DNA of 64,000 nucleotides from Thiocapsa marina 5811 (GTDB lineage Bacteria > Pseudomonadota > Gammaproteobacteria > Chromatiales > Chromatiaceae), in NCBI RefSeq assembly GCF_000223985.1, contig NZ_AFWV01000003.1, positions 310,001-374,000 of the forward strand, given 5' to 3'. Below are positions 31,003 to 52,027 of the stretch, piece by piece. The notes beneath the pieces were generated by a model that was not told the DNA's origin, did not search any database, and saw only the letters and a program-made list of their open reading frames with translations. Position 1 is the first letter of the stretch. Each line of letters opens with the position of its first letter. The position numbers were made by a program, and so were the translations under genes.

Positions 31003-31005
31003 GCC

Positions 31006-31509
31006 ATGGCGATCCTCGATATCCTCAGACTACCCGATCCGCGTCTGAAGCAGGTCTCCGAGCCGGTCGAGCACTTCGACGACAACCTGCGCGCTTTCGT
31101 GGCGGACCTCGAAGAAACCCGTCTGGCCGGTCCGGCCGCCGTCGGCATTGCCGCCCCGCAAGTCGGACGCTTTCAGCGCATCGTCATCGTCGATGTCTCG
31201 GGTCGTCCGAAGACCCCCAATCACGGCCATCTGATCCTGGTGAACCCCGAGATCGTCCATTGGGAGGGTTACGCGATCGGTCGCGAAGGTTGCCTCTCGG
31301 TCCCGGACTACACCGGCAACGTCATCCGTGCCACCGGCATCCGCTTGAAGGCGCAGGATCCCGACGGTCGGGAGCACGAATACGCGATGGAGGGATACGA
31401 GGCGCGCGCGGTTCAGCACGAGATGGACCACCTCGACGGCCTGCTGTTCGTCGATCGGGTCGTGAGTCGGCGCACCGATCTGTATCGGCGCAAGGTGTAC
31501 CAGACCTAA
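31006..31509 (+). CDS. def: Peptide deformylase
   Basis: Removes the N-formyl group from new proteins. 167 residues with the three motifs GIAAPQVG, EGCLSVP (metal Cys) and QHEMDHLDG (metal His pair and catalytic Glu). EGCLSVP and the length agree with bacterial type I/III enzymes. The usual partner fmt is absent. Its stop TAA (31507-31509) is the first three bases of an 84-bp element. Confidence 0.95.
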   Translation: MAILDILRLPDPRLKQVSEPVEHFDDNLRAFVADLEETRLAGPAAVGIAAPQVGRFQRIVIVDVSGRPKTPNHGHLILVNPEIVHWEGYAIGREGCLSVPDYTGNVIRATGIRLKAQDPDGREHEYAMEGYEARAVQHEMDHLDGLLFVDRVVSRRTDLYRRKVYQT

Positions 31510-31590
31510 ACCGCGTCCAGAGCGATATGGGGCGTTTTCATTGTGCGCTTGGCCTCGGAGATATCCTGGATCCCAGTGAGACGCGGTTTA
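31507..31590 (+). repeat. 84-bp element, type 1, at the def stop codon
   Basis: Starts TAAACCGCGTCCAGAGCGA and ends GACGCGGTTTA, 84 bp. The initial TAA is the def stop. After a 22-base AT-rich linker it is followed by an inverted type 2 element, making a composite from 31507 to 31700. Confidence 0.88.
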
Positions 31591-31612
31591 GAATTTAGTA
31601 TTTTTGAATATG

Positions 31613-31700
31613 TTAAACCGCGCAGCCTCAGACAGTCGCCGGAGCCGGCGCGGCCAAGCGACTCTGACATCTTACGATTACCCTAATGGGCGCGGTTTAA
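31613..31700 (-). repeat. 88-bp element, type 2, inverted
   Basis: TTAAACCGCG at one end and CGCGGTTTAA at the other. Read on the minus strand it follows the type 2 pattern: TTAAACCGCGCCC, then TTGGCCGCGCCGGCTCCGG, then the closing end. 88 bp, equal to the copy at 21005-21092. Confidence 0.82.
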
Positions 31701-31844
31701 GCGCACATGAAGAGAGGCGGTCGCGGACCCATATCTCCTGTTCGGGCAGTTGTCCGTTCCGCGTTGGATGCAGGTGTTCGCGGTACGGACCAGAAACCCC
31801 GTCCGACCAACGTTGTCTCTCTTCCAAGAGATGGATTACGAGAA

Positions 31845-33950
31845 ATGCCTATGAGATCGCGCCTGTCCCGCCTTGCCTTCTTCGTCGCGGCCGTCCTGGC
31901 GGCGACGCTTGTCGTTGCCGCTCCGCGTCAGGTTCCTTTATCGGAGCTGTTTCCGAGCCCCGCCCAGACCAAGTCGGCGGTCGTGATCAACAAGGTCTTG
32001 GAGCGCTTTCACTACAGGAAGGTCGATCTCGACCCGGCGTTTGCGCAAGACGTGCTCGACAACTACCTCGAGGCACTGGATCCGAGCCGTTCGTTCTTTC
32101 TGGCCCGCGACGTCGATCGCTTCAAAGGCGGTGCCAAACGCCTGGATGAAGGGCTGCGTCGCGGCGAGCTCGACCTCGCCTTCGACGTCTTTCGGGTGTA
32201 TCGGATGCGGGTCGACGAGCGGGTCATCTACGCCGAGAGTCTTCTGAAGGGGCCGTTCGATTTCGATCGCGACGAGACCTACAGACTCGACTCGCCGGAT
32301 GCGGCGTGGGCCAAGGACAGCGCCGAGTTGGACGAGATCTGGCGCAGGCGCGTGAAGAACGACTTTCTGACCCTGCGTCTGGCTGACAAGACGGACGATG
32401 AGATTCGAGAACGGTTGAGCGAGCGGTATCAAGGGTTGGTTCGTCGCACCCATCAGTTCGACGGGAACGACGTCTTCCAGACGTTCATGAATGCCTACAC
32501 CCAGACGCTCGAGCCGCATACGAGCTACATGTCGCCCAGCACATCCGAGAACTTCGACATCAGCATGAAGCTCTCGCTCGAAGGGATCGGCGCGGTCCTG
32601 CGAGCGGACAACGAGTACACGGTGATCCAGAGCACGGTCCCCGGCGGTCCGGCCCGGGAGTCCGGTCAGGTCCAGACGGGCGATCGGATCGTCGGGGTTG
32701 CGCAAGGGCTCGACGGCGCGATCGAGGACGTCGTGGGCTGGCGGCTCCAAGACGTCGTGGACAAGATCCGCGGACCCAAAGGATCGGTCGTCAGGCTGCA
32801 GCTGCTGCCGAAATCCGCCGCAACCAACGGCGGCGTCCGCGAGGTCGCGATCGTCCGCAACGAGATCAAGCTCGAGGATCAGGCTGCGAAGGCCCAGGTC
32901 CTGGACCAGCTCGACAACGCACCGGGGATGCGGATCGGCGTGATCGAGATCCCGGCTTTTTACCGGGACTTCCAGGCCGAGGGCTCGGGCGATCGCGATT
33001 TCCGCAGTACGACGCGCGACGTGCGCCAGCTCCTCGACGAGCTGGTGCTGAAAGGCGTCGACGGTATCGTGATCGACCTGCGCGGCAACGGCGGCGGCTC
33101 GTTGGCCGAGGCGACCTCGCTGACCGGTCTCTTCATCGATACAGGCCCGGTCGTTCAGGTGAAGGATGCCTTCGGCAAGATCGAGGTCGAGACCGATCCC
33201 GAGCCGGGCCTTGCCTACCGCGGGCCTCTGGCCGTGCTGGTCGACCGCGACAGCGCCTCTGCCTCCGAGATCTTCGCCGGAGCTATTCAGGACTACGGGC
33301 GCGGTCTGGTGATCGGCGAGCCCACCTTCGGCAAGGGCACCGTGCAGACCCTGATCGATCTGAATCGCTACGTCCCGGGCGAGCAGAACAACCTCGGGCG
33401 CCTGCGTCTGACGATGGCCGAGTTCTTCCGCATCAGCGGCGGGAGCACACAGCTGCGCGGCGTCGAGCCGGATATTCGCTTCCCGACCGCGGAGCTCATG
33501 GCCGAGCACGGCGAGCGATCCCTCGACAACGCCTTGCCTTGGACCCGAATTCGGCCGGCCGAGTACAAAAAGGCGGGTTCCGTCAGCGTCGATCTCCTCG
33601 CCCTGCAGTCGGCCGAGCGCGTGTCCAAAGATCCCGGTTTCACGATGCTGGTCGAGCGCAGCAAGCTGCTGCGCGATGTCGAGGCCCAAACCCATGTCTC
33701 GCTCCAAGAGAAGGCGCGTCGCGAGGAGGACAAGCGGCGCGGGAGCGTCTTCAAGGAGCAGCAGGACTCGTATCTGCGCGCGCGCGGGATCGCTCCGGTC
33801 GACGAGGACGACGAACAGGTCGACGAGGATCTACTCGACGCCCAACGCGAGGCCATTGCGCGCATCCAGGTGGAAGAGGCCGCCCGTATCCTCGCCGATG
33901 CCGTGTTGCTCGACCGCACGGAACGGCCGCGTGCCGTGATGCGTGACTGA
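31845..33950 (+). CDS. prc: Carboxy-terminal (tail-specific) protease Prc, S41 family
   Basis: Periplasmic protease of 701 residues (E. coli Prc 682). Signal peptide LSRLAFFVAAVLAATLVVAA, N-terminal helical region, PDZ domain (~240-320: LEGIGAVLRADNEYTVIQSTVPGGPARESGQVQTGDRIVGV), then the S41 core with catalytic Ser in RDSASASEIFAGAI and Lys in TFGKGTVQ. A C-terminal charged domain completes it. It trims lipoproteins and penicillin-binding proteins in relatives. Start ATG 31845 leads straight into the signal peptide; no strong ribosome site is visible. Its stop TGA is the first three bases of an element. Confidence 0.93.
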   Translation: MPMRSRLSRLAFFVAAVLAATLVVAAPRQVPLSELFPSPAQTKSAVVINKVLERFHYRKVDLDPAFAQDVLDNYLEALDPSRSFFLARDVDRFKGGAKRLDEGLRRGELDLAFDVFRVYRMRVDERVIYAESLLKGPFDFDRDETYRLDSPDAAWAKDSAELDEIWRRRVKNDFLTLRLADKTDDEIRERLSERYQGLVRRTHQFDGNDVFQTFMNAYTQTLEPHTSYMSPSTSENFDISMKLSLEGIGAVLRADNEYTVIQSTVPGGPARESGQVQTGDRIVGVAQGLDGAIEDVVGWRLQDVVDKIRGPKGSVVRLQLLPKSAATNGGVREVAIVRNEIKLEDQAAKAQVLDQLDNAPGMRIGVIEIPAFYRDFQAEGSGDRDFRSTTRDVRQLLDELVLKGVDGIVIDLRGNGGGSLAEATSLTGLFIDTGPVVQVKDAFGKIEVETDPEPGLAYRGPLAVLVDRDSASASEIFAGAIQDYGRGLVIGEPTFGKGTVQTLIDLNRYVPGEQNNLGRLRLTMAEFFRISGGSTQLRGVEPDIRFPTAELMAEHGERSLDNALPWTRIRPAEYKKAGSVSVDLLALQSAERVSKDPGFTMLVERSKLLRDVEAQTHVSLQEKARREEDKRRGSVFKEQQDSYLRARGIAPVDEDDEQVDEDLLDAQREAIARIQVEEAARILADAVLLDRTERPRAVMRD

Positions 33951-34033
33951 ATCGCGTCACTCGACGACATGCCCTGGTTTCGCGCTGAATCGACGTTGTA
34001 TGGATTCATGCGCGGTGCAGCGGACGCGATTCA
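33948..34033 (+). repeat. Type 1 element variant at the prc stop codon (86 bp)
   Basis: Ends TGAATCGCGTC and GACGCGATTCA are perfect inverted repeats of 11 bp. The initial TGA is the prc stop. The inner GACGACATGC resembles the GAGCGACATGC of the copy at 14411. Confidence 0.8.
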
Positions 34034-34152
34034 GGTGTTCGGATCTCGAAGATTTTCGCCCGGATGGCGCACGGGAGCGCTTCCGCATCCCGCGGCGGTG
34101 GATGAGCCGGTTGTCGGCTATCGCCCGGGCGGGGCGCAGCGTACTGCCGATC

Positions 34153-34245
34153 TTAAACCGCGCCCGGTCCGGTATGCGTCGTCTGTTCTGTTGGATTGGC
34201 TTGGCCGCGTCGGCTTCGATAACTGTCGGAGCCGGCGCAGTCTAA
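34153..34245 (+). repeat. Type 2 element (93 bp)
   Basis: Starts TTAAACCGCGCCCGGTCCGG and shares GTATGCGTCGT with the copy at 21005-21092. It contains the GCGTCGGCTTCG/GTCGGAGCCGGCGC stem and ends in a worn GCAGTCTAA. With the following AT linker and inverted type 1 copy it forms a composite (34153-34350). Confidence 0.82.
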
Positions 34246-34266
34246 GGTATTCAATACTATTGATTT

Positions 34267-34350
34267 TAAACAGCGTCTCCGCAAAGGTCGGGAGAATCCT
34301 TGAGCCCGATACAACATGAAAACGGCGCATTTCACTCTGGACGCGGTTTA
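34267..34350 (-). repeat. 84-bp element, type 1, inverted, upstream of gshA
   Basis: Read on the minus strand it begins TAAACCGCGTCCAGAGTGA and ends GACGCTGTTTA, 84 bp, closely matching 14411-14494. Its last bases contribute to the TAAGGA ribosome site of gshA. Confidence 0.86.
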
Positions 34351-34361
34351 AGGACCAGTCA

Positions 34362-36002
34362 TTGAATCAGTCTCGAAAGGATCTTCAAACGCGGATCGAG
34401 CGTCTGCGTTCCGCCGGCGCATCCGAGCGGCTCCGCGGCAATCGCATCGGCCTGGAAAAGGAGGGACTACGCGCCTCGGCGGCGGGCCATCTAGCTCTCT
34501 CGCCGCACCCGCGAGCGCTCGGCTCGGCCTTGACCCATCCCTACATCACGACCGATTTCTCCGAGGCACTGCTTGAGCTCATCACGCCTCCGGCCTCCAG
34601 CGTCGAGGAGGTGCTGGGATTCCTCGCCGACCTCCATGCCTACGTCTACCGCTATCTCGGTGACGAGCTGATCTGGGCGACCAGTATGCCCTGCGTCCTC
34701 GAGGGCGGTGCGGGTATCCCGCTGGCGCAATACGGGACGTCGAACGCCGCGACCATGAAGACGGTCTATCGGCGTGGGCTGGGCAACCGATACGGTCGCA
34801 CCATGCAGGTGATCGCGGGTCTGCATTTCAACTTTTCGTTTTCCGACGATTTCTTCGATCTGTACCAGGCGACTCAGGGTGTGAAGGGCGATGACGTGGC
34901 CTTTCGCTCGGAGGTCCAGATGGGAATGGTCCGGAACCTGCAGCGCGTCGGCTGGATCGTGCCCTACCTCTTCGGAGCATCGCCTGCGGTCTGTGCCAGC
35001 TTCGTCCAGGGGCGCGAGACCGATCTGCAGATCTTCGATCCCCACACGCTCTATTACCCTTATGCGACCTCGCTGCGCATGGGCGACATCGGGTATCAGA
35101 ATCAACAGGAACAAGGCACCGGGATGAAGGCAAGCTACGACAGCCTCGATTCCTATGTGCGCAGCCTGACCTGGGCGATCGAGACCCCTTGTCCGCAGTA
35201 CGAGAAGATCGGCGTGAAGGTCGGCGATCGTTACGAGCAGCTCAATGCCAACGTCCTGCAGATCGAGAATGAGTATTACAGCACGGTGCGTCCCAAGCAG
35301 GTCACGGAGTGGATGGAGCGCCCGACGCTGGCGCTGCGCCGTCGCGGCATTCGCTATGTGGAGCTGCGCTCTCCCGACATCAGCATCTTCGAGCCGGCCG
35401 GGATCACGGCCGAGCAGATTCGTGTGCTCGAAACCCTGATGCTCTATTGCCTGGTCCTGGACAGCCCGCGTATCGGGGCGCGGGAGCGCCGCGAGATCGA
35501 CGAGAATCAGGTCCTCGTTGCCCATCGGGGACGTGAGCCCGGGCTTGGACTCTCGCGTCAACGCACGGCGGTGTCCTTGCGGGTCTGGGCGAGCGAGATC
35601 CTGGACGATATGGTCGCTGTCGCGGAGCTCCTCGACGGGGCGTCGAATGGTCCACATGTGCAGAGCGTCGAGCAGCAGCGCGAAAAGGTCATCGATCCTC
35701 ACGCGACCCCGTCGGCCCGTATCCTCGAGACGATGCGCGAGCGTGGTGAAAGCTTCTTCGCTTTCGCTCGGCGACTCACGCAGGACCATCGAGAGACATT
35801 CAGGCACCACAGTCTTGATCCGGAGCGCGAAGCACTCTTCGAGCGGCTTTCACGCGAGTCGATCGCGCAGCAGCAGGCGATCGAGGCCGCCGACGATTGC
35901 GGGTTCGACGCGTTTCTTGCGGACTATTTCAACCAGGGCCGAGCGACCGATATCGGTCTGGATTTGGCTGTCGATCGCGCCGAGATTCGGGCGCAGGTCT
36001 AA
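34362..36002 (+). CDS. gshA: Glutamate-cysteine ligase (gamma-GCS, proteobacterial type)
   Basis: First enzyme of glutathione synthesis. 546 residues with the family start GNRIGLEKEGLR, the substrate region YITTDFSEALLELITPP, and the core TMQVIAGLHFNFSFSD, YEQLNANVLQIENEYYSTVRPK and RGIRYVELRSPDISIFEP. Start is TTG 34362, seven bases after TAAGGA at the edge of the inverted 84-bp element. The stop TAA (36000-36002) is the first codon of another element. It lies alone on the plus strand between repeats. Confidence 0.94.
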   Translation: MNQSRKDLQTRIERLRSAGASERLRGNRIGLEKEGLRASAAGHLALSPHPRALGSALTHPYITTDFSEALLELITPPASSVEEVLGFLADLHAYVYRYLGDELIWATSMPCVLEGGAGIPLAQYGTSNAATMKTVYRRGLGNRYGRTMQVIAGLHFNFSFSDDFFDLYQATQGVKGDDVAFRSEVQMGMVRNLQRVGWIVPYLFGASPAVCASFVQGRETDLQIFDPHTLYYPYATSLRMGDIGYQNQQEQGTGMKASYDSLDSYVRSLTWAIETPCPQYEKIGVKVGDRYEQLNANVLQIENEYYSTVRPKQVTEWMERPTLALRRRGIRYVELRSPDISIFEPAGITAEQIRVLETLMLYCLVLDSPRIGARERREIDENQVLVAHRGREPGLGLSRQRTAVSLRVWASEILDDMVAVAELLDGASNGPHVQSVEQQREKVIDPHATPSARILETMRERGESFFAFARRLTQDHRETFRHHSLDPEREALFERLSRESIAQQQAIEAADDCGFDAFLADYFNQGRATDIGLDLAVDRAEIRAQV

Positions 36003-36050
36003 ACCGCGTCGGCTCTGGACCGTCGTCGGAGCTGGCGCGGCCTAGCCAAT
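36000..36050 (-). repeat. Partial type 2 element at the gshA stop codon
   Basis: TAAACCGCGTCGGCTC... then GTCGGAGCTGGCGCGGCCTA and GCCAATCCA: the reverse of the type 2 segment TGGATTGGCTTGGCCGCG seen near 34190. The far end is not recognisable. The first TAA is the gshA stop. Confidence 0.7.
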
Positions 36051-36145
36051 CCAGTTGGGATGTCGATTCCCGGAAATCGCCTAACATCGATCGAGCCAGA
36101 GCCAGAGTGCGTTGCGCTCCGCTCGTGAGCGCGTTCATCGAAACG

Positions 36146-36173
36146 ACAAAGACCCCGTTGCCGGGGTCTTTGT
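36146..36173. terminator. Bidirectional intrinsic terminator
   Basis: ACAAAGACCCCG and CGGGGTCTTTGT form a perfect 12-bp stem with loop TTGC, flanked by A- and T-rich arms, between the convergent gshA and Met-Pro repeat genes. Confidence 0.8.
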
Positions 36174-36189
36174 ATCGTGCGAAACCGGT

Positions 36190-36215
36190 GTCCCGGAGGC
36201 GATCGCCTCCGGGAC
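36190..36215 (-). terminator. 26-bp perfect palindrome after the Met-Pro repeat gene
   Basis: GTCCCGGAGGCGA / TCGCCTCCGGGAC, eight bases beyond the stop of the minus-strand gene. It is GC-rich without a T-run and may stabilise the mRNA end before the terminator at 36146. Confidence 0.6.
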
Positions 36216-36222
36216 CTGGCCT

Positions 36223-36918
36223 TTACTGTGCAGGTGCGGCGGCTTGCTGCTCGGTGCCTTGGGTCTGCGTCGGCGCGCAGTCCTGGCTCCCCATATTGCT
36301 CGGGCGCATGTGCGGCGCATAGGCTGCCATATGGGTGCGTTCCATGGCGCGCGGGTGCTCGGCTCGACGCTGCTCGCTCTCCGCCTTGAAGGCGGCACGG
36401 CGCTCCTGAATCTCCTGCTGAACCTTGGCGCGGTGAGCATCCATCTCATCCATGCGTGTCTTCACGAATTCAGGCATGGCCGGAATCTGGCCGAACTCAG
36501 GCATGGCCGGCATCTCAGGCATGGCCGGAATCTGGCCGAACTCAGGCATGGCCGGCATCTCGGGCATGGCCGGGATCTGACCGAACTCAGGCATGGCCGG
36601 CATCTCGGGCATCGCGGGGTACTGGGCGAATTCCGGTACCGGCGGCATCTGCGGGAAGCCGGCTTCGATGCCGGAAGGCATCCGAGCGAAATCGGCTGCG
36701 CGCTGCTCCATCATCTGCCGATGGGCCTCCATCGCCTGCTCGATGGCCTTGTTCTGCTGCTCGACCATCGCCTCATGCCGAGCGGATATGGCCTGCATCT
36801 GCTGCTCGGCCATCTCGGGCGTCATGATCGGCGCGACGGGAGCGTTGCACCAGGCACCGGCTGAGGATGCGGCGGCGGCAAGGGCGATGAGCGAGGCTGC
36901 TTGGACGAGCTTGGACAT
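36223..36918 (-). CDS. Exported Met-Pro-rich tandem-repeat protein; possible sulfur-globule protein
   Basis: 231 residues from ATG 36918, after AAGGTG. A signal peptide (KLVQAASLIALAAAASSAGA) is followed by a Gln/Met/Glu-rich helix that looks coiled-coil, then about 3.5 copies of a 15-residue unit PAMPEMPAMPEFGQI (DNA ~36470-36630, 45-bp units), then a second charged helix and a Pro/Gln tail. Low-complexity exported proteins with long helices coat the periplasmic sulfur globules of Chromatiaceae, so an Sgp-like structural role is possible, but this is inference. A strong promoter-like site lies 260 bases upstream, and two stem-loops follow the stop. Confidence 0.7.
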   Translation of the reverse strand: MSKLVQAASLIALAAAASSAGAWCNAPVAPIMTPEMAEQQMQAISARHEAMVEQQNKAIEQAMEAHRQMMEQRAADFARMPSGIEAGFPQMPPVPEFAQYPAMPEMPAMPEFGQIPAMPEMPAMPEFGQIPAMPEMPAMPEFGQIPAMPEFVKTRMDEMDAHRAKVQQEIQERRAAFKAESEQRRAEHPRAMERTHMAAYAPHMRPSNMGSQDCAPTQTQGTEQQAAAPAQ

Positions 36919-37177
36919 GGAACACACCTTTTTTATTGGAATCCGATGGGTTTTGAATATCTTGCGAGTCTTTCCCGCCTCTCGGGGAGCCGTTTGGGCT
37001 CGAAGCAACGGTGGAGCGAGACTCACGGGCCTTGATCAAGGACAGTCGAGGCAACAGCGTCGGGATCGCACCCCGTCCATGGGCGTCATGGCATCCGGAT
37101 CCCGTGCCATGAAGCGGGTGTCGGCAGCAAACTGATTATTGTCGTTGCTCTTCGACCGCCGTCTTGATTAGGGCATC

Positions 37178-37205
37178 AGTATATAAGAATTCGCTAACAT
37201 ATCAA
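37178..37205 (-). promoter_or_regulatory. Sigma70-like promoter candidate for the Met-Pro repeat gene
   Basis: On the minus strand TTGATA and TATACT are separated by 16 bases (each 5 of 6 consensus positions) in an AT-rich region. It would give a leader of about 250 bases. Confidence 0.5.
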
Positions 37206-37273
37206 CCCAAAGTTGCACCCGCGACGAACGGCTGCCGTCACCGCAACTTAACCCGATGATTTTATTATTTTCC

Positions 37274-37357
37274 TGAACCGCGTCTACTGCGAGGCCCGTT
37301 GATCGACAGGGGGACTCATCGATATGAGAGGCTGCATATCATTCCGGACGCGGTTCA
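37274..37357 (-). repeat. 84-bp element, type 1 variant, next to the sthA stop
   Basis: Ends are TGAACCGCGTC and GACGCGGTTCA, 84 bp. On the minus strand it starts TGAACCGCGTCCGGAATGA, with ATATGC following as in other copies. The sthA stop TAA ends one base before the element. Confidence 0.83.
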
Positions 37358-37358
37358 G

Positions 37359-38756
37359 TTAGAAGAGCCGATTCAAGCCGTTGAGCGCCGCGACCCGATA
37401 GGCTTCCGCCATCGTGGGGTAGTTGAAGGTGGTCTCGGTGAAGTACCGGATGCTGTTCGCCTCGCCGCGCTGGGACATGATTGCTTGGCCGATATGGACG
37501 ATCTCGGCGGCCTGCTCGCCGAAACAGTGGATCCCCAGGATCTCCAGGGTCTCGCGGTGGAAGAGGAGCTTGAGCATGCCGACCGTGTGTCCGGTGATCT
37601 GGGCACGGGCAATGCTCTTGAAGTCCGCTTGGGCCACTTCGTAGGGGATCTGTCGAGCGGTGAGCTCGCGCTCGGTCCGGCCCACGGAGCTGATCTCGGG
37701 TACCGTATAGATTCCGGTCGGGAATTCCTCGATCAGCGACCAGTCGCAGGCACCGTCGGCGATGTGTGCACCGACAAACCGCCCTTGATCGTAGCTGGCG
37801 CTGGCCAGCGCGGGTTGCCCCACCACGTCGCCGACGGCATAGATGTGCGGCAAGGTGGTCTGGTAGCTCTTGTTGACCTCGAGTTGGCCGCGCTGATTGG
37901 GGGCCAATCCGATGGTCTCGAGTCCAAGGTCGTGGGTGTTGCCGGTCCGTCCGTTGGCCCAGAGCAGGATGTCCGTCTTGAATTTCTTGCCTGACTTGCA
38001 GTGCAGCACCACACCGCCCTCATCGGCTTCGACACGCTCGTAGGTCTCGTTGTGCCGGATCACCACGCCTTGCTGGCGCAGGTGGTACCCGAGGGCGTCG
38101 GTGATCTCGTCGTCGAGGAAGGACAGGAGTCGGTCGCGCGTATCGACCAGGTTCACCTTCACGTCGAGCGCGCCCATGATCGAGGCGTACTCGCAACCGA
38201 TGACCCCTGCACCATAGATGGTCATGGATCGCGGCGTATGCCTCAGTCCGAGAACCGAGTCGCTGTCGCGGATGCGCGGGTGCGTGAAATCGACATCCGG
38301 CGGATGGTAGGGACGCGAGCCGGTGGCGATGACGATATGGTCTGCGCGCAGCTCTTCGGTGACGCTGCCCGGGCGTTGGACCTCGATGCGATCGTCGCCC
38401 AGAAAACGCGCCCGCCCGAACACGACCTCGACCCGATTGCGCTGATAGTACCGATACCGGGTGCGAACCTGTTCGTTGATCACGCCGTCCGCGGCGCGCA
38501 GAAGGTCCGGAAACTCGGCTTCGATCTGATGCTGGGTGTGCTGGAACAGCGGGTTGCGCCGATAGTCCGCAAGCATCTGGATCGAGTGGCGCAGCGCCTT
38601 GCTCGGGATGGTGCCCCAGTGGGTACAGCCTCCACCCACCGCATTGTGGGCCTCGATCACGGCGACCCGTTGCCCGGCCTTGGCGAGCTTCATCGCCGCG
38701 CCTTCCCCGGCGGGTCCGGTCCCGATGACGATACTGTCGAATTCTCTGGTGGTCAT
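37359..38756 (-). CDS. sthA: Soluble pyridine nucleotide transhydrogenase
   Basis: SthA (UdhA) is an FAD enzyme that equilibrates NADPH and NAD+. 465 residues with the FAD loop [10 protein letters not shown], the SthA-specific [17 protein letters not shown] (only one of the two redox cysteines of related disulfide reductases), a second dinucleotide site [15 protein letters not shown], and [17 protein letters not shown]. The C-terminal dimer domain ends NGLNRLF. Length equals E. coli SthA. Confidence 0.95.
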
Positions 38757-38877
38757 CGCGACGGACTCCGGTTGGGGTTCAAAAGGCTACCTTACAACGG
38801 TAAGCACGGAACGGGCCATCTTGATGCGCGGATGGCCGCGCCCTGGCCGATGGCCGCTGCCGGATGGACAAGCACCG

Positions 38878-38975
38878 TAGGGTGGACAAGCGCAGCGCAG
38901 TCCACCAACACCACCAACCCAACCAACGCCGGCACGGGGTTCGGTGGACTTCGCTCTCGCTCGTCCATCCTACAC
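38878..38975. repeat. GTAGGGTGGAC inverted repeat pair
   Basis: A copy of the GTAGGGTGGACAAGCGCAGC...GTCCACC repeat (38878-38908) and an imperfect reverse copy (38941-38975) face each other across 32 bases. The same motif recurs at 57177 and 63351-63451. This class of intergenic palindromic repeat is common in gammaproteobacteria. Here it lies just past the 3' end of the PqiA-like gene. Confidence 0.75.
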
Positions 38976-39045
38976 GGAGCGTCCATCTTCACGGCTTATG
39001 GATAACGCCTTCCGGCAACGAGGCGTTTAGGTTCCTCGCCACGGC

Positions 39046-40370: not shown

Positions 40371-40371
<1 letters not shown>
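39046..40371 (-). CDS. PqiA-like membrane protein
   Basis: 441 residues. An N-terminal membrane anchor (VLALALLIGAGWLLIGLVG), a ~190-residue periplasmic helical region, then four helices forming a PqiA-type domain (residues ~235-430; TKSIFDVMRILFESGQADMLLVAVLLTLFSVVFPALKLLATY...GKWSMADVMVVAIFMAYIGF). Classical PqiA has two such domains and zinc ribbons; here there is one and no CxxC. PqiA proteins work with MCE proteins in lipid transport, but no MCE gene is adjacent. Its ATG overlaps the dnaE stop by one base (TGATG). Confidence 0.78.
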
Positions 40372-45266
<4,895 letters not shown>

Positions 45267-45587
45267 GGGTGGTCCTGGTCGGGTTCGACGATGGCGGCGA
45301 GGGATGCCGGCCGGATAGTCTACCGGTCCGCCCGCGTCACGCCGATTCGGAAAAACAGATCGGATCCGGGATCCGGGTCGGGATCCTCGACCGGGGCGAT
45401 CGCCGGCGGGGGTGTTGTTCGCGTCCTTGTCGGTGGAACGACCGCGACGACGGGCTTGGAGCCTGCGGGATCTCGAGGACTTTTCCGGCTTAGCCTGGCT
45501 CGGTCAAGGGGCATGCGCCCTATTCGACCGATTGGCGCTCGTCCGAGACCGATCAGTCGGTCGAGCGACTCTTCGCCCGCGAAGACG
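45267..45587. other. Region between dnaE and the PIN pseudogene
   Basis: No gene supported. A Phd/YefM antitoxin would be expected just upstream of a PIN toxin, but none is recognisable in any plus-strand frame. Confidence 0.5.
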
Positions 45588-46030
45588 ATGCGCCTGCTGC
45601 TTGATACCTGCATCCTTTACGACTGGATGATGGATTCCCTGGCCGATCCCGAGACGGTCGCGCTGATCTAGCAGACAGGGGCCTTTGTCAGCGCCGTTGC
45701 GGTCCGGGAGATGTCGATCAAGCACGCCTTGGGCAAGATGGCACTCCTTCGCGCCGAATCGTCGAGGACCTCGGAGCACAGGGATTCGGCTGGCTCAGTA
45801 TCACGCCGAGCCATGCTCAGGCCGTCCTCGACCTCCCCGCGCATCACAAAGACCCCTTCGACCGTCTCCTGATCGCGCAGGCCCGATGCGAGGGGATGCA
45901 AATCCTCACCTATGATCGGCTCTTCCGCGACTATCTGCCGGAGACGCGGCTGCGCTTGGCCCGGCCTACGGTGCTGGATACCGATAGGCTCGCGGGCATC
46001 GACAACTCTCCAATCAAGGGACGGTCTTGA
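45588..46030 (+). pseudogene. VapC-like PIN-domain toxin, inactivated
   Basis: ATG 45588 starts MRLLLDTCILYDWMMD, the PIN start with its first Asp. An in-frame TAG at 45669 interrupts it. The same frame continues with FVSAVAVREMSIKHALGKMALL (second acidic residue), then shifts frame near 45745-45760 and continues GWLSITPSHAQAVLDLPAHHKDPFDRLLIAQARCEGMQILTYDRLF to TGA 46030. All PIN blocks are recognisable in order, so this is one decayed gene. The end overlaps the convergent thioredoxin gene. Confidence 0.82.
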
Positions 46031-46550
46031 GCGCCCGCACCTGATCCAGCAGCGCGGGATCGTCCCATTCACGCTCGCCGGTGGCGCTGTACACCAGGCG
46101 GCCTTCCGGGTCGATGACGAAAGTCGTCGGCAGCCCCTTGACCGGGTAGCTCTGCACGACCTCGGAGTCCAGGTCCATCGGGATCGAGAAGTCGATATCG
46201 GTCTCGCTCAGAAATCGTACGATGGTCTCTGCGTCTTCGCCGACGTTGACGGCGATCACCGAGACGCCCTCGTCGTTTAGGGTTTCGTGGGCGCGCTGCA
46301 TCGAGGGCATCTCGGCGCGGCAGGGCGGGCACCAGGTCGCCCAGAAGTTGAGGATGACAGGCTTGCCGCGATGATCGGCGAGACGTTGCGGCTCGCCGGC
46401 GGGCCCTTGGAGGTCGAACTCGGGTGCCTGGATGTCATCCGACATCGGCGTTAGGGTTTGCGGCTCGTCCGCCGTCAAGGCGGCAGACGAGAATAAGAGG
46501 GCCGAAGCCCCGACGAAGTTGCAGAGAGAACGCATGGGGTTGCTCTTCAA
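46014..46550 (-). CDS. TlpA/ResA-like periplasmic thioredoxin
   Basis: 178 residues with an N-terminal signal helix (LCNFVGASALLFSSAALTA) and a thioredoxin fold with active site FWATWCPPCRAEMP. A cis-proline is present in VKGLPTTFVID. It is probably an exported thiol-disulfide reductant for cytochrome c maturation or protein repair. No cyc genes are adjacent. ATG 46535 is an alternative start five codons in. Confidence 0.88.
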   Translation of the reverse strand: MKSNPMRSLCNFVGASALLFSSAALTADEPQTLTPMSDDIQAPEFDLQGPAGEPQRLADHRGKPVILNFWATWCPPCRAEMPSMQRAHETLNDEGVSVIAVNVGEDAETIVRFLSETDIDFSIPMDLDSEVVQSYPVKGLPTTFVIDPEGRLVYSATGEREWDDPALLDQVRALKTVP

Positions 46551-46773
46551 TGAGGTGATATATGTCGATCACCCGCGAACACGATTCCTGCCGACTTGGC
46601 AAGGCAGGGGATCATCGCGCCCTCGGGATTACGGAGATGGAGAGGGCGCAAGCAGGCTTCAAGTCGGCGCGGCACCCTGGGTAGATCACGGCGACAAGGC
46701 TCACCGACCCGATATAATGAACCGACGGCAAGCGGCCGGAAGCGCCGTCCGACTCCTCTCCGAGAGAGCGCAC

Positions 46774-48141
46774 ATGAACCACGCCATGCCCGTGTCAGAG
46801 CGCATCGACGCGCTGCTCTGGAGTCGTCGGCTCGACGAGATGCCGCCTTGGCAAGCCCTTTCGATCTGGCTCGGGCGTTTGATCTATGCGCTCGTGCGCG
46901 ACCTGACGCAAGGCTATCTGTCACTACAGGCCATGAGTTTGGTCTACACGACCATCTTGGCGCTCGTGCCCTTGCTGGCGGTGACCTTCTCGGTGTTGAA
47001 GGGGTTCGGTGTCCACAATCAATTGGAGCCTCTGCTGCTGAAGGTGTTCGGCCCGCTCGGCGAGGGCGGCGTGGAGATCACCACCCAGATCATCGGCTTT
47101 GTCGACAACATGCGAGTGGGCGTTTTGGGGTCGGTCGGACTCGCACTGCTGATCTATACCGTCATCTCGCTGGTCCAGAAGATCGAGCAGGTCTTCAACT
47201 TTACCTGGCGCGTCTCCACGCAGCGCTCCTTCGCGCAACGGTTCAGCAAGTATTTGAGCGTCATCCTCGTGGGTCCGGTGCTCTTTTTCTCGGCCGTCGG
47301 ACTCTCGGCCTCGCTCGGCGGGAACGCCTTCGTACAAGCGATCATCGAGGCGAAGCCATTCGGACATGTCTGGCATGCGTTGGGTCAGCTCGGGCCCTAC
47401 ATGATGATTTCGTTGACATTCGCCTTCTTTTACCTCTTCGTTCCCAACACGCGGGTACATATCCTCTCCGCGCTCGTCGGGGCGCTCATCGCCGGGCTGC
47501 TTTGGGAGTTCATCGGGGGGATGTTCTCTTATTTCATGGCCAGCTCGACGCGCTTGATGGCGGTCTATTCGAGTCTGGCAATCCTGATCCTCTTCATGAT
47601 CTGGATCTACATCGCATGGTTGATCCTGCTGATCGGCGCAAGCATCGCCTTCTACCACCAACACCCCGAGTATCTGAGGATCCGCTCGCGTGATCTGCAG
47701 TTGAGCAATCGACAGCGCGAGCGTCTGGCTCTGCTCCTTGCAGGGCAGGTGGCGCGCCGTTACGAGTCGGGCGAGCCGCCTTGGAGCAGCGAGGCGCTCG
47801 CGCAGACGTTCGGGGTTCCCAAGAGCAACGCCGAGCGGATGTTGGGTGTGCTCGAGGAGGCGGGTTTTCTGATTCGCACGGCCGGTGATTCGCTGACCTT
47901 CGTCCCGGCGCGTGCAACGGACGGTATCTCGGTGAAGGCGATGCTCGATGCGGTGCGCTGTTTCGAAGAACGCGAGAGCGGTTGTCGCGGCACCGCTCCG
48001 GAGGGAGAGATCGGACGGATCGAGACGAGCATCGATCAGGCGATGGACGCGGCGCTCGGCGGCATGACGCTGCGTGACCTTGCGCGTGCACTCGACAGGT
48101 CCGTGTCTGCGGCTCCGTTCGTCGATTCCGGGCAGGGTTGA
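46774..48141 (+). CDS. YihY/BrkB family membrane protein with C-terminal winged-helix-like extension
   Basis: 455 residues; E. coli YihY is about 290. Six helices form the YihY domain (QAMSLVYTTILALVPLLAVTFSVLKGFG..., WEFIGGMFSYFMASSTRLMAVYSSLAILILFMIWIYIAWLILLIGA). The extra ~130 residues contain a winged-helix-like segment (SSEALAQTFGVPKSNAERMLGVLEEAGFLIRT) followed by a charged helical tail. The function of the family is unresolved; the early link to RNase BN is wrong. Start ATG 46774 follows GAGAG. Confidence 0.85.
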   Translation: MNHAMPVSERIDALLWSRRLDEMPPWQALSIWLGRLIYALVRDLTQGYLSLQAMSLVYTTILALVPLLAVTFSVLKGFGVHNQLEPLLLKVFGPLGEGGVEITTQIIGFVDNMRVGVLGSVGLALLIYTVISLVQKIEQVFNFTWRVSTQRSFAQRFSKYLSVILVGPVLFFSAVGLSASLGGNAFVQAIIEAKPFGHVWHALGQLGPYMMISLTFAFFYLFVPNTRVHILSALVGALIAGLLWEFIGGMFSYFMASSTRLMAVYSSLAILILFMIWIYIAWLILLIGASIAFYHQHPEYLRIRSRDLQLSNRQRERLALLLAGQVARRYESGEPPWSSEALAQTFGVPKSNAERMLGVLEEAGFLIRTAGDSLTFVPARATDGISVKAMLDAVRCFEERESGCRGTAPEGEIGRIETSIDQAMDAALGGMTLRDLARALDRSVSAAPFVDSGQG

Positions 48142-48147
48142 TCGATC

Positions 48148-50439
48148 ATGCCGTACCGAGGCAACGGGCTGCCGAAAAACCCCGCGACGGATGCACTGAT
48201 CGAGGCGGACCTCACACGTTTGCTGTTCGAGCAGCTCCCCGCCAGTCTCCTCATCACCGCGGCGAACGCCCTGCTGGTGGCCGCCGCGATGAGTTTCGTC
48301 TCCTCACCGGCCGGGGCCTGGATCTGGTTCGCCGCGCTCGTGGTGATTCTGCTTGCCCGCGGGCTCCTGATGTTGCGCTATCGGCGCGCCGGCGAGGCGC
48401 GTTTTTCGGCCGATTGGACCCGTCGCTTCGCGTTGGGTGCCGCGGCAACGGGTCTTGCCTGGGGCCTCTCGGTCTTCCTGCTCCCCAGCCATGTCTTGAC
48501 CTACCAGGTCTTTCTCGGCTTTGTCATCTCCGGGATGGTCGCGGGAGCCATCCCGAGCTTGAGCGCCTGCCCGGCGGCCTATCTCTACTACATGCTCGGT
48601 GCGCTGGTGCCCTTCGCGCTGCGGATGATCGTGATCGGTGACGAGCTTGCATATACCTTTCTGGCGCTGATCCTCCTGTTCGCCGTCTTTATGTGGCTGA
48701 ATGCGCGTCGCTATCACCGCACCCTGCGCCATTCGCTCGAGCTGGGGCACGTCAATCTCGATCTGATCGCGAGTTTGACGCAGGACAAGGAGCGGATCGC
48801 CGCGTTGAATCGGGATCTCGAGCGCGAGGTCGAGGAGCGACGCGCGACCGAGGCGGCTTTGGTGATCGCCAAGGAGCAGGCCGAATCTGCGAGCATCGCC
48901 AAGGGTCAGTTCGTTGCCAACATGAGCCACGAGATCCGCACGCCGATGAACGGCGTGCTCGGTCTGCTGGAGATGCTCTCGCACGAGCGCTTGAGCGCGG
49001 AGCAGAGAGGGCTGGTCGACGTGGCGCACACCTCCGCGGAAAGCCTGCTCAACGTCATCAACGACGTCCTGGATTTCTCCAAAATCGAGTCCGGGCGACT
49101 CGATTTCGAACGTATCCCGTTCGATTTGCGCCGCCTGGTCGAGGATGTTGCAGGTCTCTTCACAGCGAGCGCGCGCAGCAAACAGCTTGAGCTGGTCTGT
49201 TTCGTACCACCGGGGCTGCCGGCCCGCGTGATGGGCGATCCTCACCGCCTGAGGCAGATCTTGACCAATGTCTTGGGCAATGCGGTGAAGTTTTCGCTCT
49301 CGGGCGAGGTTGCGCTGCGTGTCGATGTCTGTGCCGAGGAGGCCGGACGCAGTCGGTTCTCCTTCGAGATCTCGGACACCGGGATCGGTATGACGCCCGA
49401 GCAGCTCGCGCGTCTCTTCAAACCCTTTGTCCAGGCCGACGGCTCCACGACACGGCGTTTCGGCGGGTCCGGCCTCGGTCTCGCCATCAGCAAGGATCTG
49501 ATCGAGCTGATGGGCGGCGACATCCAGGTCGAGAGCACCTTCGGTCGGGGTTCTCGGTTTCTCGTTCGACTGCCGTTCGATCATCAATCCGAGACGGCCG
49601 AGCCGACGGACGGCGCGGGGTTGGAGGGTCGGCGGATCCTCTGTGTCGACGACAACGCGACCAATCTGGAGATCCTCGGGCACTATTTGCAGGAATGGGG
49701 TGTGGCCTACGAGGCTGTGACCGACGGACCGACAGCGCTCGAGCGGCTGGTCCGCGCGCAGGCGCGGGATCGGCCTTTCGAGGCCGCGGTGCTGGATCTG
49801 CAGATGCCCGAGATGGATGGCCTTGCACTCGCGCGGGCGATTCGCGCGACACCCGGCATCGCTGCCGTCCGATTGATCCTGCTGAGCTCGGGCGGGTGCC
49901 CGGAGCCCGTCGGCGAGGCTGCCGAGACGGTCGATCTTGTCTTGAGCAAGCCGGTGCGGCAGGGTCTGCTTCGTGACGCACTCGCGCAGGTGCTCGTCAC
50001 CGGCAGGCCGATCCCGGACCCGGGCGCGACGCCGATCCTCGATCGACCCATGACGGGGCGTGTGTTGTTGGCCGAAGACAATCCGGTCAATCAACAGGTG
50101 GCGCGCGGCATGCTCATGCGGTTGGGCATCGAGGCGGACCTCGTCGAGAATGGTGCCGAGGCAATCGAGCGACTTGCGAGCGGGCGCTATGACGCCGTGC
50201 TGATGGACATGCAGATGCCGGTGCTCGACGGTCTCGGGGCGACGCGGCATTGGCGAGAGCGGGAACATCGCGAAGGCCGTTCGCACATCCCCATCATTGC
50301 GATGACCGCCAACGCGATGGCCGCGGATCGCGATGCCTGCCTGGAGGCGGGGATGGACGACTATCTCGCGAAGCCGGTCAAGATCGGTGCGCTGCGCGAG
50401 ACCTTACGTCGGTGGTTGCCGGTTGCGAAACGAGGTTGA
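48148..50439 (+). CDS. Hybrid sensor histidine kinase with two receiver domains
   Basis: 763 residues. Six membrane helices (~35-205) form an unclassified sensor; a coiled coil (LTQDKERIAALNRDLEREVEERRATEAAL) leads to the HisKA domain with MSHEIRTPMNGVLGLLEM and an intact ATPase (DTGIGMTPEQLARLFKPF, GGSGLGLAISKDLIELMGG). Two receivers follow with acceptor Asp in AAVLDLQMPEMDG and AVLMDMQMPVLDG. There is no HPt domain, so a separate HPt protein would finish the relay. It starts six bases after the yihY-like gene and is likely co-transcribed. Confidence 0.92.
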   Translation: MPYRGNGLPKNPATDALIEADLTRLLFEQLPASLLITAANALLVAAAMSFVSSPAGAWIWFAALVVILLARGLLMLRYRRAGEARFSADWTRRFALGAAATGLAWGLSVFLLPSHVLTYQVFLGFVISGMVAGAIPSLSACPAAYLYYMLGALVPFALRMIVIGDELAYTFLALILLFAVFMWLNARRYHRTLRHSLELGHVNLDLIASLTQDKERIAALNRDLEREVEERRATEAALVIAKEQAESASIAKGQFVANMSHEIRTPMNGVLGLLEMLSHERLSAEQRGLVDVAHTSAESLLNVINDVLDFSKIESGRLDFERIPFDLRRLVEDVAGLFTASARSKQLELVCFVPPGLPARVMGDPHRLRQILTNVLGNAVKFSLSGEVALRVDVCAEEAGRSRFSFEISDTGIGMTPEQLARLFKPFVQADGSTTRRFGGSGLGLAISKDLIELMGGDIQVESTFGRGSRFLVRLPFDHQSETAEPTDGAGLEGRRILCVDDNATNLEILGHYLQEWGVAYEAVTDGPTALERLVRAQARDRPFEAAVLDLQMPEMDGLALARAIRATPGIAAVRLILLSSGGCPEPVGEAAETVDLVLSKPVRQGLLRDALAQVLVTGRPIPDPGATPILDRPMTGRVLLAEDNPVNQQVARGMLMRLGIEADLVENGAEAIERLASGRYDAVLMDMQMPVLDGLGATRHWREREHREGRSHIPIIAMTANAMAADRDACLEAGMDDYLAKPVKIGALRETLRRWLPVAKRG

Positions 50440-50440
50440 A

Positions 50441-50821
50441 TTACGGGCTAGCCTCGTCGTTCGGAAAGAGCTCGCGATATGCCGAGGCGTCGAAGACCGC
50501 CTCGATCCTTTGGATCCGGCCCTCGTGCACGCGCGACCACTGCGCGGCCTCGACGGAGAGCTTCTCGGAGATCTGGATCCGATAGGTCAGGAAATGGCAG
50601 ATGTCCTCGCCGTCCACAAAGACCTTTCGGATCTCTCTGTCGAGCATGATGCCGCTCGACACGGCGGCGTACTGGACGAATTCATCCGCCCGATCGAACG
50701 CCGCGATCGGACTGCGGTAGCAGAAACCCTGGTCGGCGAGCAAACCACGCATCGCATCGAAATCCCGCGCCAACTGGGCGGCGAGATAGGCATCCACAAT
50801 CGACAGAGGGTCTGGGGTCAC
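50441..50821 (-). CDS. NTF2/SnoaL-like small protein
   Basis: 126 residues from GTG 50821, after GGAAG. The fold is suggested by LSIVDAYLAAQLARDFDAMRGLLADQGFCYRSPIAAFDRADEFVQY...FVDGEDICHFLTYRIQ..., typical of cone-shaped NTF2-like proteins that bind small molecules. No catalytic assignment is possible. Upstream codons stay open to 50995 but have no family character. It lies on the minus strand, downstream of the alpha-E gene. Confidence 0.72.
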   Translation of the reverse strand: MTPDPLSIVDAYLAAQLARDFDAMRGLLADQGFCYRSPIAAFDRADEFVQYAAVSSGIMLDREIRKVFVDGEDICHFLTYRIQISEKLSVEAAQWSRVHEGRIQRIEAVFDASAYRELFPNDEASP

Positions 50822-50977
50822 CGTCGGCTTCCGATTCTGCGAGAAGGAGCGCTCATGGTGCAGGGTTTTCCCCGATGCGTCCAATCGATGGCCGATGAGG
50901 GCCGCGATCCAAACCGATGCAGCCCATCGTCCTCTCGCCGCCGATGGGTTTATGTCGGCATCCTGTTTCTCGCTGTC

Positions 50978-51061
50978 TGAATCGCCTCGCACCAAACCCG
51001 GTCGTTTGGTTCAAGACCGAACCGATACACCGACCGGGCATATCGTTGCGAACGCGATTCA
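50978..51061 (-). repeat. 84-bp element, type 1 variant, next to the alpha-E stop
   Basis: TGAATCGC and GCGATTCA ends, 84 bp. Read on the minus strand it starts TGAATCGCGTTCGCAACGA followed by TATGC as in other copies. The alpha-E stop TGA ends three bases before it. Confidence 0.78.
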
Positions 51062-51064
51062 GCT

Positions 51065-52027
51065 TCAGTCCTGTGTCTGAGATTGCGACTGCGACTCCGG
51101 AGGCGGCGGAAACCACGTCCGCGCCAGTTCCTCATGCAGATCGCCGATCCCGACCTGAAGGTCGTCGATGAAGGCGTGCAGCTGTTGCTGATTGAGTCGG
51201 CGCGGCTCGGTCCCTTCGAGATTACGCTTGAGCCGTCCCGCGACGCGCAAGGCGGATTCATTGCGCGGCAGCTTCGAAAGACTGGTCCGCAGGGCGTCGA
51301 TGCAATGCACGACCGAGCGCGGGAATGTCTCGTTCTGAAACAGAAAGCGCAACACAGGCCCACGCAACACGCGAATCTGCTCGCTGCGCCGATAGGCCTG
51401 ATAGGCCGTCATGGATTTCAGCACGCTGACCCATTGAATCGTCTCGAAGGGCCGCAGCTCGGTTGCCTCCTCGGGCAGCAGATTGGCCGAACGCACGTCG
51501 ATGATGCGGGTGGTCATGTCCGCGCGTTCGAGAAAGCGTCCCAGGTGCAGGAAGTCGTAACCCTGGTCATGCAGCATGGTGCCGGAAAGCAGCCCGTTGA
51601 TGTTCTGGGCGCCTTGGATCACTCGCTTGAGATAGGCGTGTCGACCGCCCTTCGTCATTCCCTTCGGGAGATCCTCGCGGGCGAAGAGATAGATCTCGTT
51701 GAGCAGCTCCCAGACCTCGCGCGGGACGAAGTCGCGAATGGTGCGACAGTTCTCGCGTGCCGCCATCAGCGCCGCCAGGATCGATCCCGAGTTGCGCTCG
51801 TCGGCGAGTAAGAAGCGCACGACGTTGCGCTCGCTGTAGTCCTTGTAGTGCTCTTCGAAGAGCGGGTTTGCGCCCGTGATGTCCACCAACGGCCTCCAAC
51901 CCGGCGCAATGCCTTTCGGCAGGTCGAGCAGGAGATTGGCGTTGACCGTCACGATACGGGCGGTGTTTTCGGCCCGCTCGACATAGCGGGCCATCCAGTA
52001 AATGTTTTCTGCAACGCGCGAGAGCAT
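51065..52027 (-). CDS. Alpha-E domain protein of the Anbu cluster
   Basis: 320 residues, helical throughout, with the family start MLSRVAENIYWMARYVERAENTARIV and blocks NLLLDLPKG, ADERNSGSILAALMAARENCRTIRD and LGRFLERADMTTRIIDVR. Alpha-E proteins are always found with a circularly permuted ATP-grasp and are thought to take part in making or modifying a peptide. The stop is three bases from a dispersed element. The transglutaminase-like gene that commonly follows in such clusters is not present; an NTF2-like gene is there instead. Confidence 0.9.
   Translation of the reverse strand: MLSRVAENIYWMARYVERAENTARIVTVNANLLLDLPKGIAPGWRPLVDITGANPLFEEHYKDYSERNVVRFLLADERNSGSILAALMAARENCRTIRDFVPREVWELLNEIYLFAREDLPKGMTKGGRHAYLKRVIQGAQNINGLLSGTMLHDQGYDFLHLGRFLERADMTTRIIDVRSANLLPEEATELRPFETIQWVSVLKSMTAYQAYRRSEQIRVLRGPVLRFLFQNETFPRSVVHCIDALRTSLSKLPRNESALRVAGRLKRNLEGTEPRRLNQQQLHAFIDDLQVGIGDLHEELARTWFPPPPESQSQSQTQD

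What the first reader, a model, noticed from the sequence alone, without database searches (positions are those of the whole stretch)
31507..51067. The element ends supply or abut stop codons
The first three bases of an element are the stop of def (31507), prc (33948), gshA (36000, type 2 fragment) and the MscS-type gene (14494, minus strand). For sthA and the alpha-E gene the element begins 1 and 3 bases after the stop. Chance cannot easily explain six of about ten copies sitting at stops. The element may insert at gene ends, or act as a 3'-end terminator or mRNA stabiliser selected to start TAA/TGA.
Basis: seen in the sequence. Interest (0 to 1): 0.82.

Follow-up and report, generated by a model that had tools for sequence, protein, structure and literature searches.

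The report
Mobile hairpins that supply stop codons
A small repeated DNA element, present in hundreds of copies in a purple sulphur bacterium of the genus Thiocapsa, often sits so exactly at gene ends that its first three letters serve as the gene's stop signal, and its two ends form a hairpin that evolution tends to keep intact.

Summary
The element is an 82-88 nt hairpin unit with ends T[AG]AACCGCG...CGCGGTT[CT]A, often doubled head-to-head around a ~23 nt AT-rich spacer. In stretches of four Thiocapsa species 46/97, 22/38, 48/96 and 25/60 gene ends facing an element have the stop codon as its first three bases; none lie at -2, -1 or 0. A second genus gives 16/33. Genes are not truncated: element-less orthologues align to the same last residue in 28 of 33 comparisons. 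The target is Y-TA-R with TA duplicated; the original stop was TAA or TAG, not TGA. In codon frame 1 YTAR can only be a stop. Stops are still over-occupied against other intergenic YTAR sites (odds ratio 4.7-14). The end stem is conserved after insertion (2.6% against 17% divergence), with three compensatory changes. Elements sit between operon genes, so terminator action is unlikely. Best reading: a MITE-like element using stop codons as safe sites, probably kept as an mRNA 3' hairpin. The RNA role is untested and no mobiliser was found.

The parts
14411..14494 (-). single F2 unit; its TAA (14494-14492, minus strand) is the stop codon of the MscS-type channel gene 14492-18046
21006..21091 (+). 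single F1 unit, not at a stop (103 nt from the stop of a PilS-type histidine kinase gene)
27524..27608 (+). single F1-cluster unit between convergent genes (P-II and YfiO-type), not at a stop
31507..31590 (+). F2 unit of a doublet; first three bases are the TAA stop of def (31006-31509)
31591..31613 (+). 23 nt AT-rich spacer of the doublet
31614..31699 (-). inverted F1 unit closing the doublet; the next base, A, is the R of the YTAR target
33948..34033 (+). TGA-class unit (TGAATCGCG...CGCGATTCA); TGA is the stop of prc; shared with relatives
34154..34244 (+). F1-type unit with a decayed right end, first half of a doublet; absent in G003, whose empty site reads TTAA
34267..34350 (-). F2 unit, second half of that doublet, 11 nt before the called gshA start; RNA fold no better than shuffles (z -0.12)
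36000..36053 (+). truncated F1-type unit; first three bases are the TAA stop of gshA (34362-36002)
37274..37357 (-). TGA-class unit starting 1 nt after the stop of sthA (37359-38756, minus)
50978..51061 (-). TGA-class unit starting 3 nt after the stop of the Alpha-E gene (51065-52027, minus)

Best explanation
The element is a MITE-like mobile DNA: two ~85 nt hairpin units, head-to-head around an AT-rich spacer, inserting at TA inside Y-TA-R with duplication of TA. At least some single units arise by deletion of one half. Because its first own base is A, an insertion at the TA of a TAA or TAG stop always leaves ...TAA, so the protein is unchanged. Because YTAR in codon frame 1 can only be a stop, and is rare elsewhere in GC-rich coding DNA, stop codons are a large class of harmless targets. 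After insertion the two ends remain paired as a 9-11 bp stem that includes the stop codon and is kept by purifying selection. The likely role is an mRNA hairpin starting exactly where the last ribosome stops, shielding the upstream message from 3' decay while letting transcription continue. Shown: target, lack of truncation, enrichment, conservation of the stem. Shown at few loci: compensation. Inferred: mobility by a transposase, and the RNA role.
For: Target: in 66 TAA..TTA stop sites the base before TA is C/T in 65 and the base after the far TA is A/G in 65; non-stop sites 33/35 and 34/35; G057 27/27. Empty sites TTAA or CTAA at several loci, TTAA for the window's 34154 doublet in G003. Original stop TAR: the far-flank base is A 51, G 47, C 1, as expected for TAA/TAG (p 0.48), not for any stop (p 1e-12). 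No truncation: 28 of 33 comparisons align to the last residue, 3 more have equal short tails. Coding depletion in this genome: 0.57 against 3.9 YTAR per kb. Persistence: orthologous position empty in 17/115 stop against 36/72 non-stop comparisons. Structure: mean z -2.6 against -0.6 in control intergenic 85-mers; terminal stem in the MFE of 115/139 stop-site units. Constraint: end positions 4-9 11/420 against interior 379/2197 at 25 stop loci. Compensation at three secure loci. G-U exceeds A-C on the mRNA strand at stop sites, 56 to 26, site sign test p 0.005.
Against: No transposase with matching ends was found. Conservation also appears, more weakly, at 11 non-stop loci (7/177 against 153/934), so it is not tied to stops. 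Uncompensated single-side changes in the stem outnumber paired ones in the deduplicated set: 7 against 2 at stop loci, 5 against 0 at non-stop loci. The antisense strand folds as well as the sense strand (z -2.7, 111/139). The G-U excess is not significant in this genome alone (19 to 8, p 0.12) or in G057 (7 to 3) and could be mutational. Stop association is the same in recent families (81/150) and unassigned copies (48/88), which does not show slow selective retention. Element-less orthologues carry TGA in 17 of 33 comparisons, more than the 27/107 turnover in the same output. Some empty sites lack TA. The origin of the TGA..TCA class is unresolved. No RNA data.
Confidence: 0.6

Rival explanations
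1. Neutral safe harbour only: a YTAR-targeting MITE is found at stops because stop insertions are harmless and others are purged; the hairpin has no function for the host.
For: YTAR is depleted in coding DNA and concentrated at stops and intergenic DNA. Non-stop insertions are more often absent in relatives. Recent-family and unassigned copies show the same stop fraction.
Against: Convergent non-stop YTAR sites, where no promoter is expected, are filled in 9/155 against 94/294 for stops. End stems are conserved about six-fold over interiors at stop loci, with three compensatory cases.
Confidence: 0.31
2. Transcription terminator at gene ends.
For: Stable hairpins right after stops; 13 of 61 doublets at stops have TTTT in the first 12 nt of the spacer.
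Against: Among tandem gene pairs the 11-30 nt gap is the most filled bin (21/38), with operon partners such as glcE-glcF. No TTTT within 12 nt of the far end in 124/133. The terminator scan of window 31000-37500 found one site, not at an element.
Confidence: 0.07
3. Insertion at any stop codon, TGA included, with the central two bases replaced by TA, rather than TA-target duplication.
For: Several empty sites have CA/TG, GA, TC or CG where the filled site has TA (G010 168783, 90044, 72502, 157711; G001 185539; def). Element-less orthologues are TGA in 17/33.
Against: The far-flank base is G in 47/99, which fits TAA/TAG targets (expected 0.51) and not all stops (0.17). Several non-stop empties are YTAR.
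Confidence: 0.1
4. A REP/REPIN-type element moved by a RAYT (Y1) transposase.
For: Inverted hairpin dimers with an AT-rich spacer; Y1_Tnp family hits in all 11 genus genomes.
Against: Units are ~85 nt and lack the tagged 20-40 nt palindrome that defines REPs in PMC3733652. None of six weaker Y1_Tnp hits (my label RAYT-like) in the fetched stretches lies within 1.5 kb of a unit. Y1_Tnp hits also occur in the element-poor G005, G006, G009. A duplicated palindromic TA target points to another enzyme class (my inference).
Confidence: 0.08
5. The element lands in coding ends and its TAA truncates the protein.
For: The end does read as a stop in frame 1 from both sides.
Against: Element-less orthologues align to the last residue in 28/33, and with equal tails in 3 more. 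There are no offsets of -2, -1 or 0.
Confidence: 0.02

Closest known systems
GTAG REPs (PMC3733652; passages and section 6 seen)
   Same: High-copy palindromic repeats, inverted dimers with spacers; the paper states that GTAG REP termini often provide the TAG stop codon to flanking ORFs.
   Different: REPs are 20-40 bp with a GTAG or CGTC motif; GTAG REPs are linked to RAYTs. Here units are ~85 nt, ends TRAACCGCG, TA duplicated at YTAR, and the stop supplied is TAA or TGA (rarely TAG).
ERIC / IRU / RU-1 (PMC2229807, passages seen; De Gregorio 2005 not held)
   Same: Short intergenic mobile repeat with 5'TA3' at its ends and a long RNA hairpin, co-transcribed with flanking genes, affecting upstream mRNA stability.
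   Different: 127 bp single element; sequence relation not tested here.
RUP and Correia elements (PMC2229807 and PMC3049150; passages seen)
   Same: Short repeats with terminal inverted repeats and TA at the termini; RUP ends match IS630-Spn1.
   Different: No use of the end as a stop codon in the passages seen; no matching IS found here.
IS711 of Brucella (PMC2266754, passages seen)
   Same: Appears to duplicate the TA of the target YTAR; a preference for palindromic repeats is reported.
   Different: An autonomous insertion sequence; no sequence relation tested.
Protective 3' hairpins in operons (PMC5927463; abstract and passages seen)
   Same: Hairpins downstream of a gene shield it from 3'-5' exonucleases inside operons (malE).
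   Different: Generally coded inside genes; not mobile repeats supplying the stop.

Membership tests
MITE (non-autonomous DNA transposon) | short, high copy, no protein | tested here: met
   84-86 nt units or ~193 nt doublets, too short for a transposase; 895 exact 9-nt ends genome-wide against 41 for the reversed control
MITE (non-autonomous DNA transposon) | terminal inverted repeats | tested here: met
   26-nt head consensus TAAACCGCGtCCaG.GCGa.ATGCg. from 240 outer ends of doublets
MITE (non-autonomous DNA transposon) | target-site duplication, empty sites in relatives | tested here: met
   TA within YTAR; some empty sites in other species lack TA
MITE (non-autonomous DNA transposon) | autonomous partner with the same ends | tested here: inconclusive
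   head scan of 2.85 Mb listed 10 candidate pairs, only one read in full and rejected; two IS630 groups had other ends
REP / REPIN | 20-40 nt palindrome with a GTAG or CGTC motif at one end | tested here: not met
   unit length and end sequence; definition from PMC3733652. CGTC does occur inside the end TAAACCGCGTCC, but not as the tag of a short palindrome
REP / REPIN | association with RAYT genes | tested here: inconclusive
   0 of 6 Y1_Tnp hits in fetched stretches within 1.5 kb of a unit; most hits lie outside those stretches
Known Rfam RNA families | match at gathering score | tested here: not met
   no match in the window
Intrinsic terminator | GC stem directly followed by a T-run | tested here: not met
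   9/133 with TTTT within 12 nt of the far end; 13/61 doublet spacers with TTTT in their first 12 nt
ERIC | sequence homology to the 127 bp consensus | not tested
   consensus not compared

The most novel reading that the evidence does not exclude
The element is a domesticated, still mobile 'stop-stem'. It places the stop codon of roughly 4-9% of genes inside a closing helix whose far strand lies ~82 nt downstream, so that the stop codon and its distant partner can co-evolve (TAA:TTA with TGA:TCA). The terminating ribosome holds the stem open and its release closes it, giving a genome-wide, transposable device that couples translation termination to mRNA protection within operons.
Probability: 0.26. 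Interest if true: 0.82.

Novelty: new variant of a known kind. Interest (0 to 1): 0.62.

Why it matters
In the sampled stretches it supplies the stop codon of 46/733, 22/553, 48/524 and 25/386 called genes in four Thiocapsa species. It shows how a target motif (YTAR) can steer a mobile element to the one place in a gene where it does no harm, and how a mobile end can then become part of the gene's mRNA. Because related species differ at individual stops, the effect of a hairpin at a stop codon can be tested gene by gene.

Tried and rejected
Terminator reading: rejected for the reasons given under rivals. Truncation reading: rejected. 'Different elements at the same stop prove repeated insertion': checked and reduced. 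Of 26 site-by-species pairs flagged, 14 are a doublet or unit against its own derivative (this includes def) and 12, about 4 loci, are unrelated units. Compensatory changes: one search printed 11 pairwise cases; I checked seven alignments and hold three loci as secure. One (own C55:153417 against G004) was dropped because its nearest units are other copies. Of the three, only one (G001_a 116998 against G010_a 213931) changes the stop codon itself; there the G004 copy has lost its far end. One is an inner unit of a doublet. One is pair 7 of the stem, in a copy whose pair 5 is broken. Autonomous partner: long end pairs; one 767 bp candidate in G010 was read and rejected as separate, partly deleted elements; the head-profile scan listed 10 candidate pairs whose genes I did not identify further; IS630, Y1, DDE_Tnp_1 and DUF4096 searches gave no copy with matching ends among the loci I could read. 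Rfam: none in the window.

Limits of the counts: the unit finder needs at most 2 mismatches over 18 end bases and 82-88 nt, so fragments (gshA 36000) and the 34154 unit are not in the genome counts. Reversed-sequence control 2 against 123 in 854 kb. Sites without a called gene on both sides were dropped; their number was not printed. Genes were called with my own dicodon model, not a published caller. Occupancy counts include TGA-class sites, whose target is not proven to be YTAR; in the gradient four sites overlapping genes fall outside the bins. Orthologue comparisons are pairwise and share species. Some identity-based 'same element' pairs of recent families may be separate insertions. The half-divergence estimate for conditioned ends was reasoned, not simulated.

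Full report
What was claimed and what is there. All six are correct (identities). The window has nine element sites; the other three are not at stops.

What the element is. Units are 82-88 nt, mostly 84-86, with ends T[AG]AACCGCG and CGCGGTT[CT]A; 123 units in 854 kb of this genome against 2 in the reversed sequence. The exact 9-mer occurs 895 times genome-wide against 41 for the reversed control. Three families (F1, F2, F3) plus many unassigned copies occur. Most assigned doublets are head-to-head, F2 or F3 facing F1; spacers are 22-23 nt in 73 of 103 doublets and 16% GC on average for those of 18-26 nt, in a window of 65% GC. Outer ends of doublets share a 26-nt head; inner ends share only about the first 11. 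Single units are at least partly deletion derivatives: at def this genome has the doublet and G004 has one unit that is 89% identical to one of its halves.

Where it occurs. Titles of the nearest named relatives place the genome in Thiocapsa. A DNA search found 21 or more matches (a capped count) in 8 of 11 genomes of the genus, this one included; G005, G006 and G009 had 2, 1 and 0. Among 77 genomes of the family (3 of them Thiocapsa), two other genera are rich in the end pattern, G057 (211+202) and G043 (46+57); G055 and G094 have a few more than their controls.

The stop coincidence. Offsets of -3 (stop codon = first three bases): 46 of 97 stop edges in this genome, 22 of 38 in G004, 48 of 96 in G010, 25 of 60 in G001, with none at -2, -1 or 0, and 16 of 33 in G057. 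In this genome 43 of 84 sites are at a stop. A few edges overlap a called gene more deeply.

Why stops. In 66 stop sites with TAA..TTA ends, the base before TA is C/T in 65 and the base after the far TA is A/G in 65. Non-stop sites show the same (33/35, 34/35), and so do all 27 such sites in G057. The target is thus YTAR with TA duplicated. Clean empty sites agree at several loci: TTAA in G003 for the window's 34154 doublet, CTAA and TTAA elsewhere. Others do not: CA/TG, GA, TC or CG stand where the filled site has TA. At stop sites the base after the far TA is the third base of the original stop. It is A 51, G 47, C 1, as TAA/TAG predict and unlike all stops. YTAR in frame 1 of a gene can only be a stop codon (genetic code). 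Its density here is 0.57/kb in coding against 3.9/kb in intergenic DNA. The element's own first base makes the junction TAA again.

Beyond target availability. Filled fraction of YTAR sites: stops 43/143, 15/72, 36/79 and 16/67, against other intergenic 41/489, 6/333, 22/311 and 17/303 (this genome, G004, G010, G057). Pooled over the first three, occupancy is 0.32 at stops, 0.33 from -2 to +10, and 0.03-0.07 in the farther bins; convergent non-stop sites are filled in 9/155. At orthologous positions of other species, stop sites are empty in 17 of 115 and non-stop sites in 36 of 72 comparisons (14 and 9 'other' left out).

No harm to the protein. In 33 comparisons with the element at only one orthologue's stop, 28 align to the last residue on both sides, 3 have equal short tails, 2 differ.

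After insertion. Orthologous copies at 25 stop loci diverge 11/420 at end positions 4-9 and 11/206 at positions 1-3, against 379/2197 in the interior; at 11 non-stop loci 7/177, 5/87 and 153/934. The finder conditions one partner on intact ends; by my reasoning, not simulated, this alone would still leave about 8%. RNA folding gives mean z -2.6 against -0.6 for control 85-mers, and the terminal stem in 115 of 139 stop-site units; the antisense strand folds equally well. In all six window units folded the first and last triplets pair; one of them (34267) folds no better than its shuffles. Three loci show paired double changes: TAA/TTA against TGA/TCA in an inner unit (own C55:121380 against G010 and G004), the same at a stop codon (G001 against G010), and G-C to A-T at pair 7. 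Single-side changes are more frequent than paired ones in the deduplicated set (7 to 2 at stop loci, 5 to 0 at non-stop loci). On the mRNA strand of stop sites G-U exceeds A-C, 56 to 26 (site sign test p 0.005), but not at tandem non-stop sites, 33 to 27, and not significantly in this genome alone.

Not a terminator. Among tandem gene pairs the 11-30 nt gap is the most filled bin (21/38). Examples are glcE-glcF and nifB-ferredoxin; GlcE, GlcF and NifB score above their NCBIfam cut-offs, the ferredoxin below. A pair I recognise from memory as flavocytochrome c subunits was not confirmed by NCBIfam. T-runs after the far end are rare (9/133); in 13 of 61 doublets the spacer starts T-rich.

Against my reading. 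Non-TA dinucleotides in several empties, TGA in 17 of 33 element-less orthologues against 27 of 107 by ordinary stop turnover, equal stop fraction in recent and unassigned copies, unresolved origin of the TGA class, and no mobiliser. On re-checking the single-side changes I lowered the main confidence from 0.62 to 0.60 and the novel case from 0.28 to 0.26, and raised the neutral rival from 0.30 to 0.31.

What is known. GTAG REP termini often provide TAG stops (PMC3733652, passages). ERIC, RUP and Correia are TA-ended repeats with RNA hairpins (PMC2229807 and PMC3049150, passages). IS711 appears to duplicate TA at YTAR (PMC2266754, passages). Hairpins protect operon segments (PMC5927463, abstract and passages). 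The listings of five literature searches showed no paper on this element, and the passages found in a Thiocapsa genome paper (PMC10892978) do not concern such repeats. The library holds open-licence papers only.

Verdict. Observation confirmed and strengthened. The insertion part is well supported, the RNA role is an inference, and the novelty is a variant of known bacterial MITE and REP systems.

Noticed in passing
window 38862-38955, 57149-57208, 63359-63454: A second dispersed repeat, around GTAGGGTGGACRAGCGCAGCGCAGTCCACC and its inverse, unrelated to the finding; 63374-63403 and 63422-63451 form a perfect 30-bp inverted repeat.
   Followed up: no
window 36425-36649: Tandem repeats with a 45-bp period inside a called minus-strand gene (36223-36918).
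   Followed up: no
L075 (Thiocapsa UBA6158), sthA end: An element starts exactly at the TAA stop of sthA, while own, S07.Bin152, T. roseopersicina and KS1 have a TGA-class unit 1-3 nt past that stop.
   Followed up: partly
L122 (Thiobaca trueperi), downstream of def: An F1-like unit start (TTAAATCGCGCCTCGTGCGGTATGCG) lies about 17 nt past the def stop in another genus.
   Followed up: no
G010:C1:652937-653703 (L182): Two hybrid units that look formed by internal deletion, joining the head of one family to the end of another.
   Followed up: no
G008: A same-genus genome listed at 10.4 Mb, about twice its relatives, perhaps a mixed or redundant assembly.
   Followed up: no
doublets, for example window 31582-31622: The inner ends of the two units are complementary across the AT-rich spacer, so an alternative hairpin could compete with the two unit stems (seen, not folded).
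   Followed up: no
single F1 units at stops, four Thiocapsa species: Single F1 units at stops have their head end at the stop in 17 cases and the tail end in 4, while doublets show no orientation bias.
   Followed up: no
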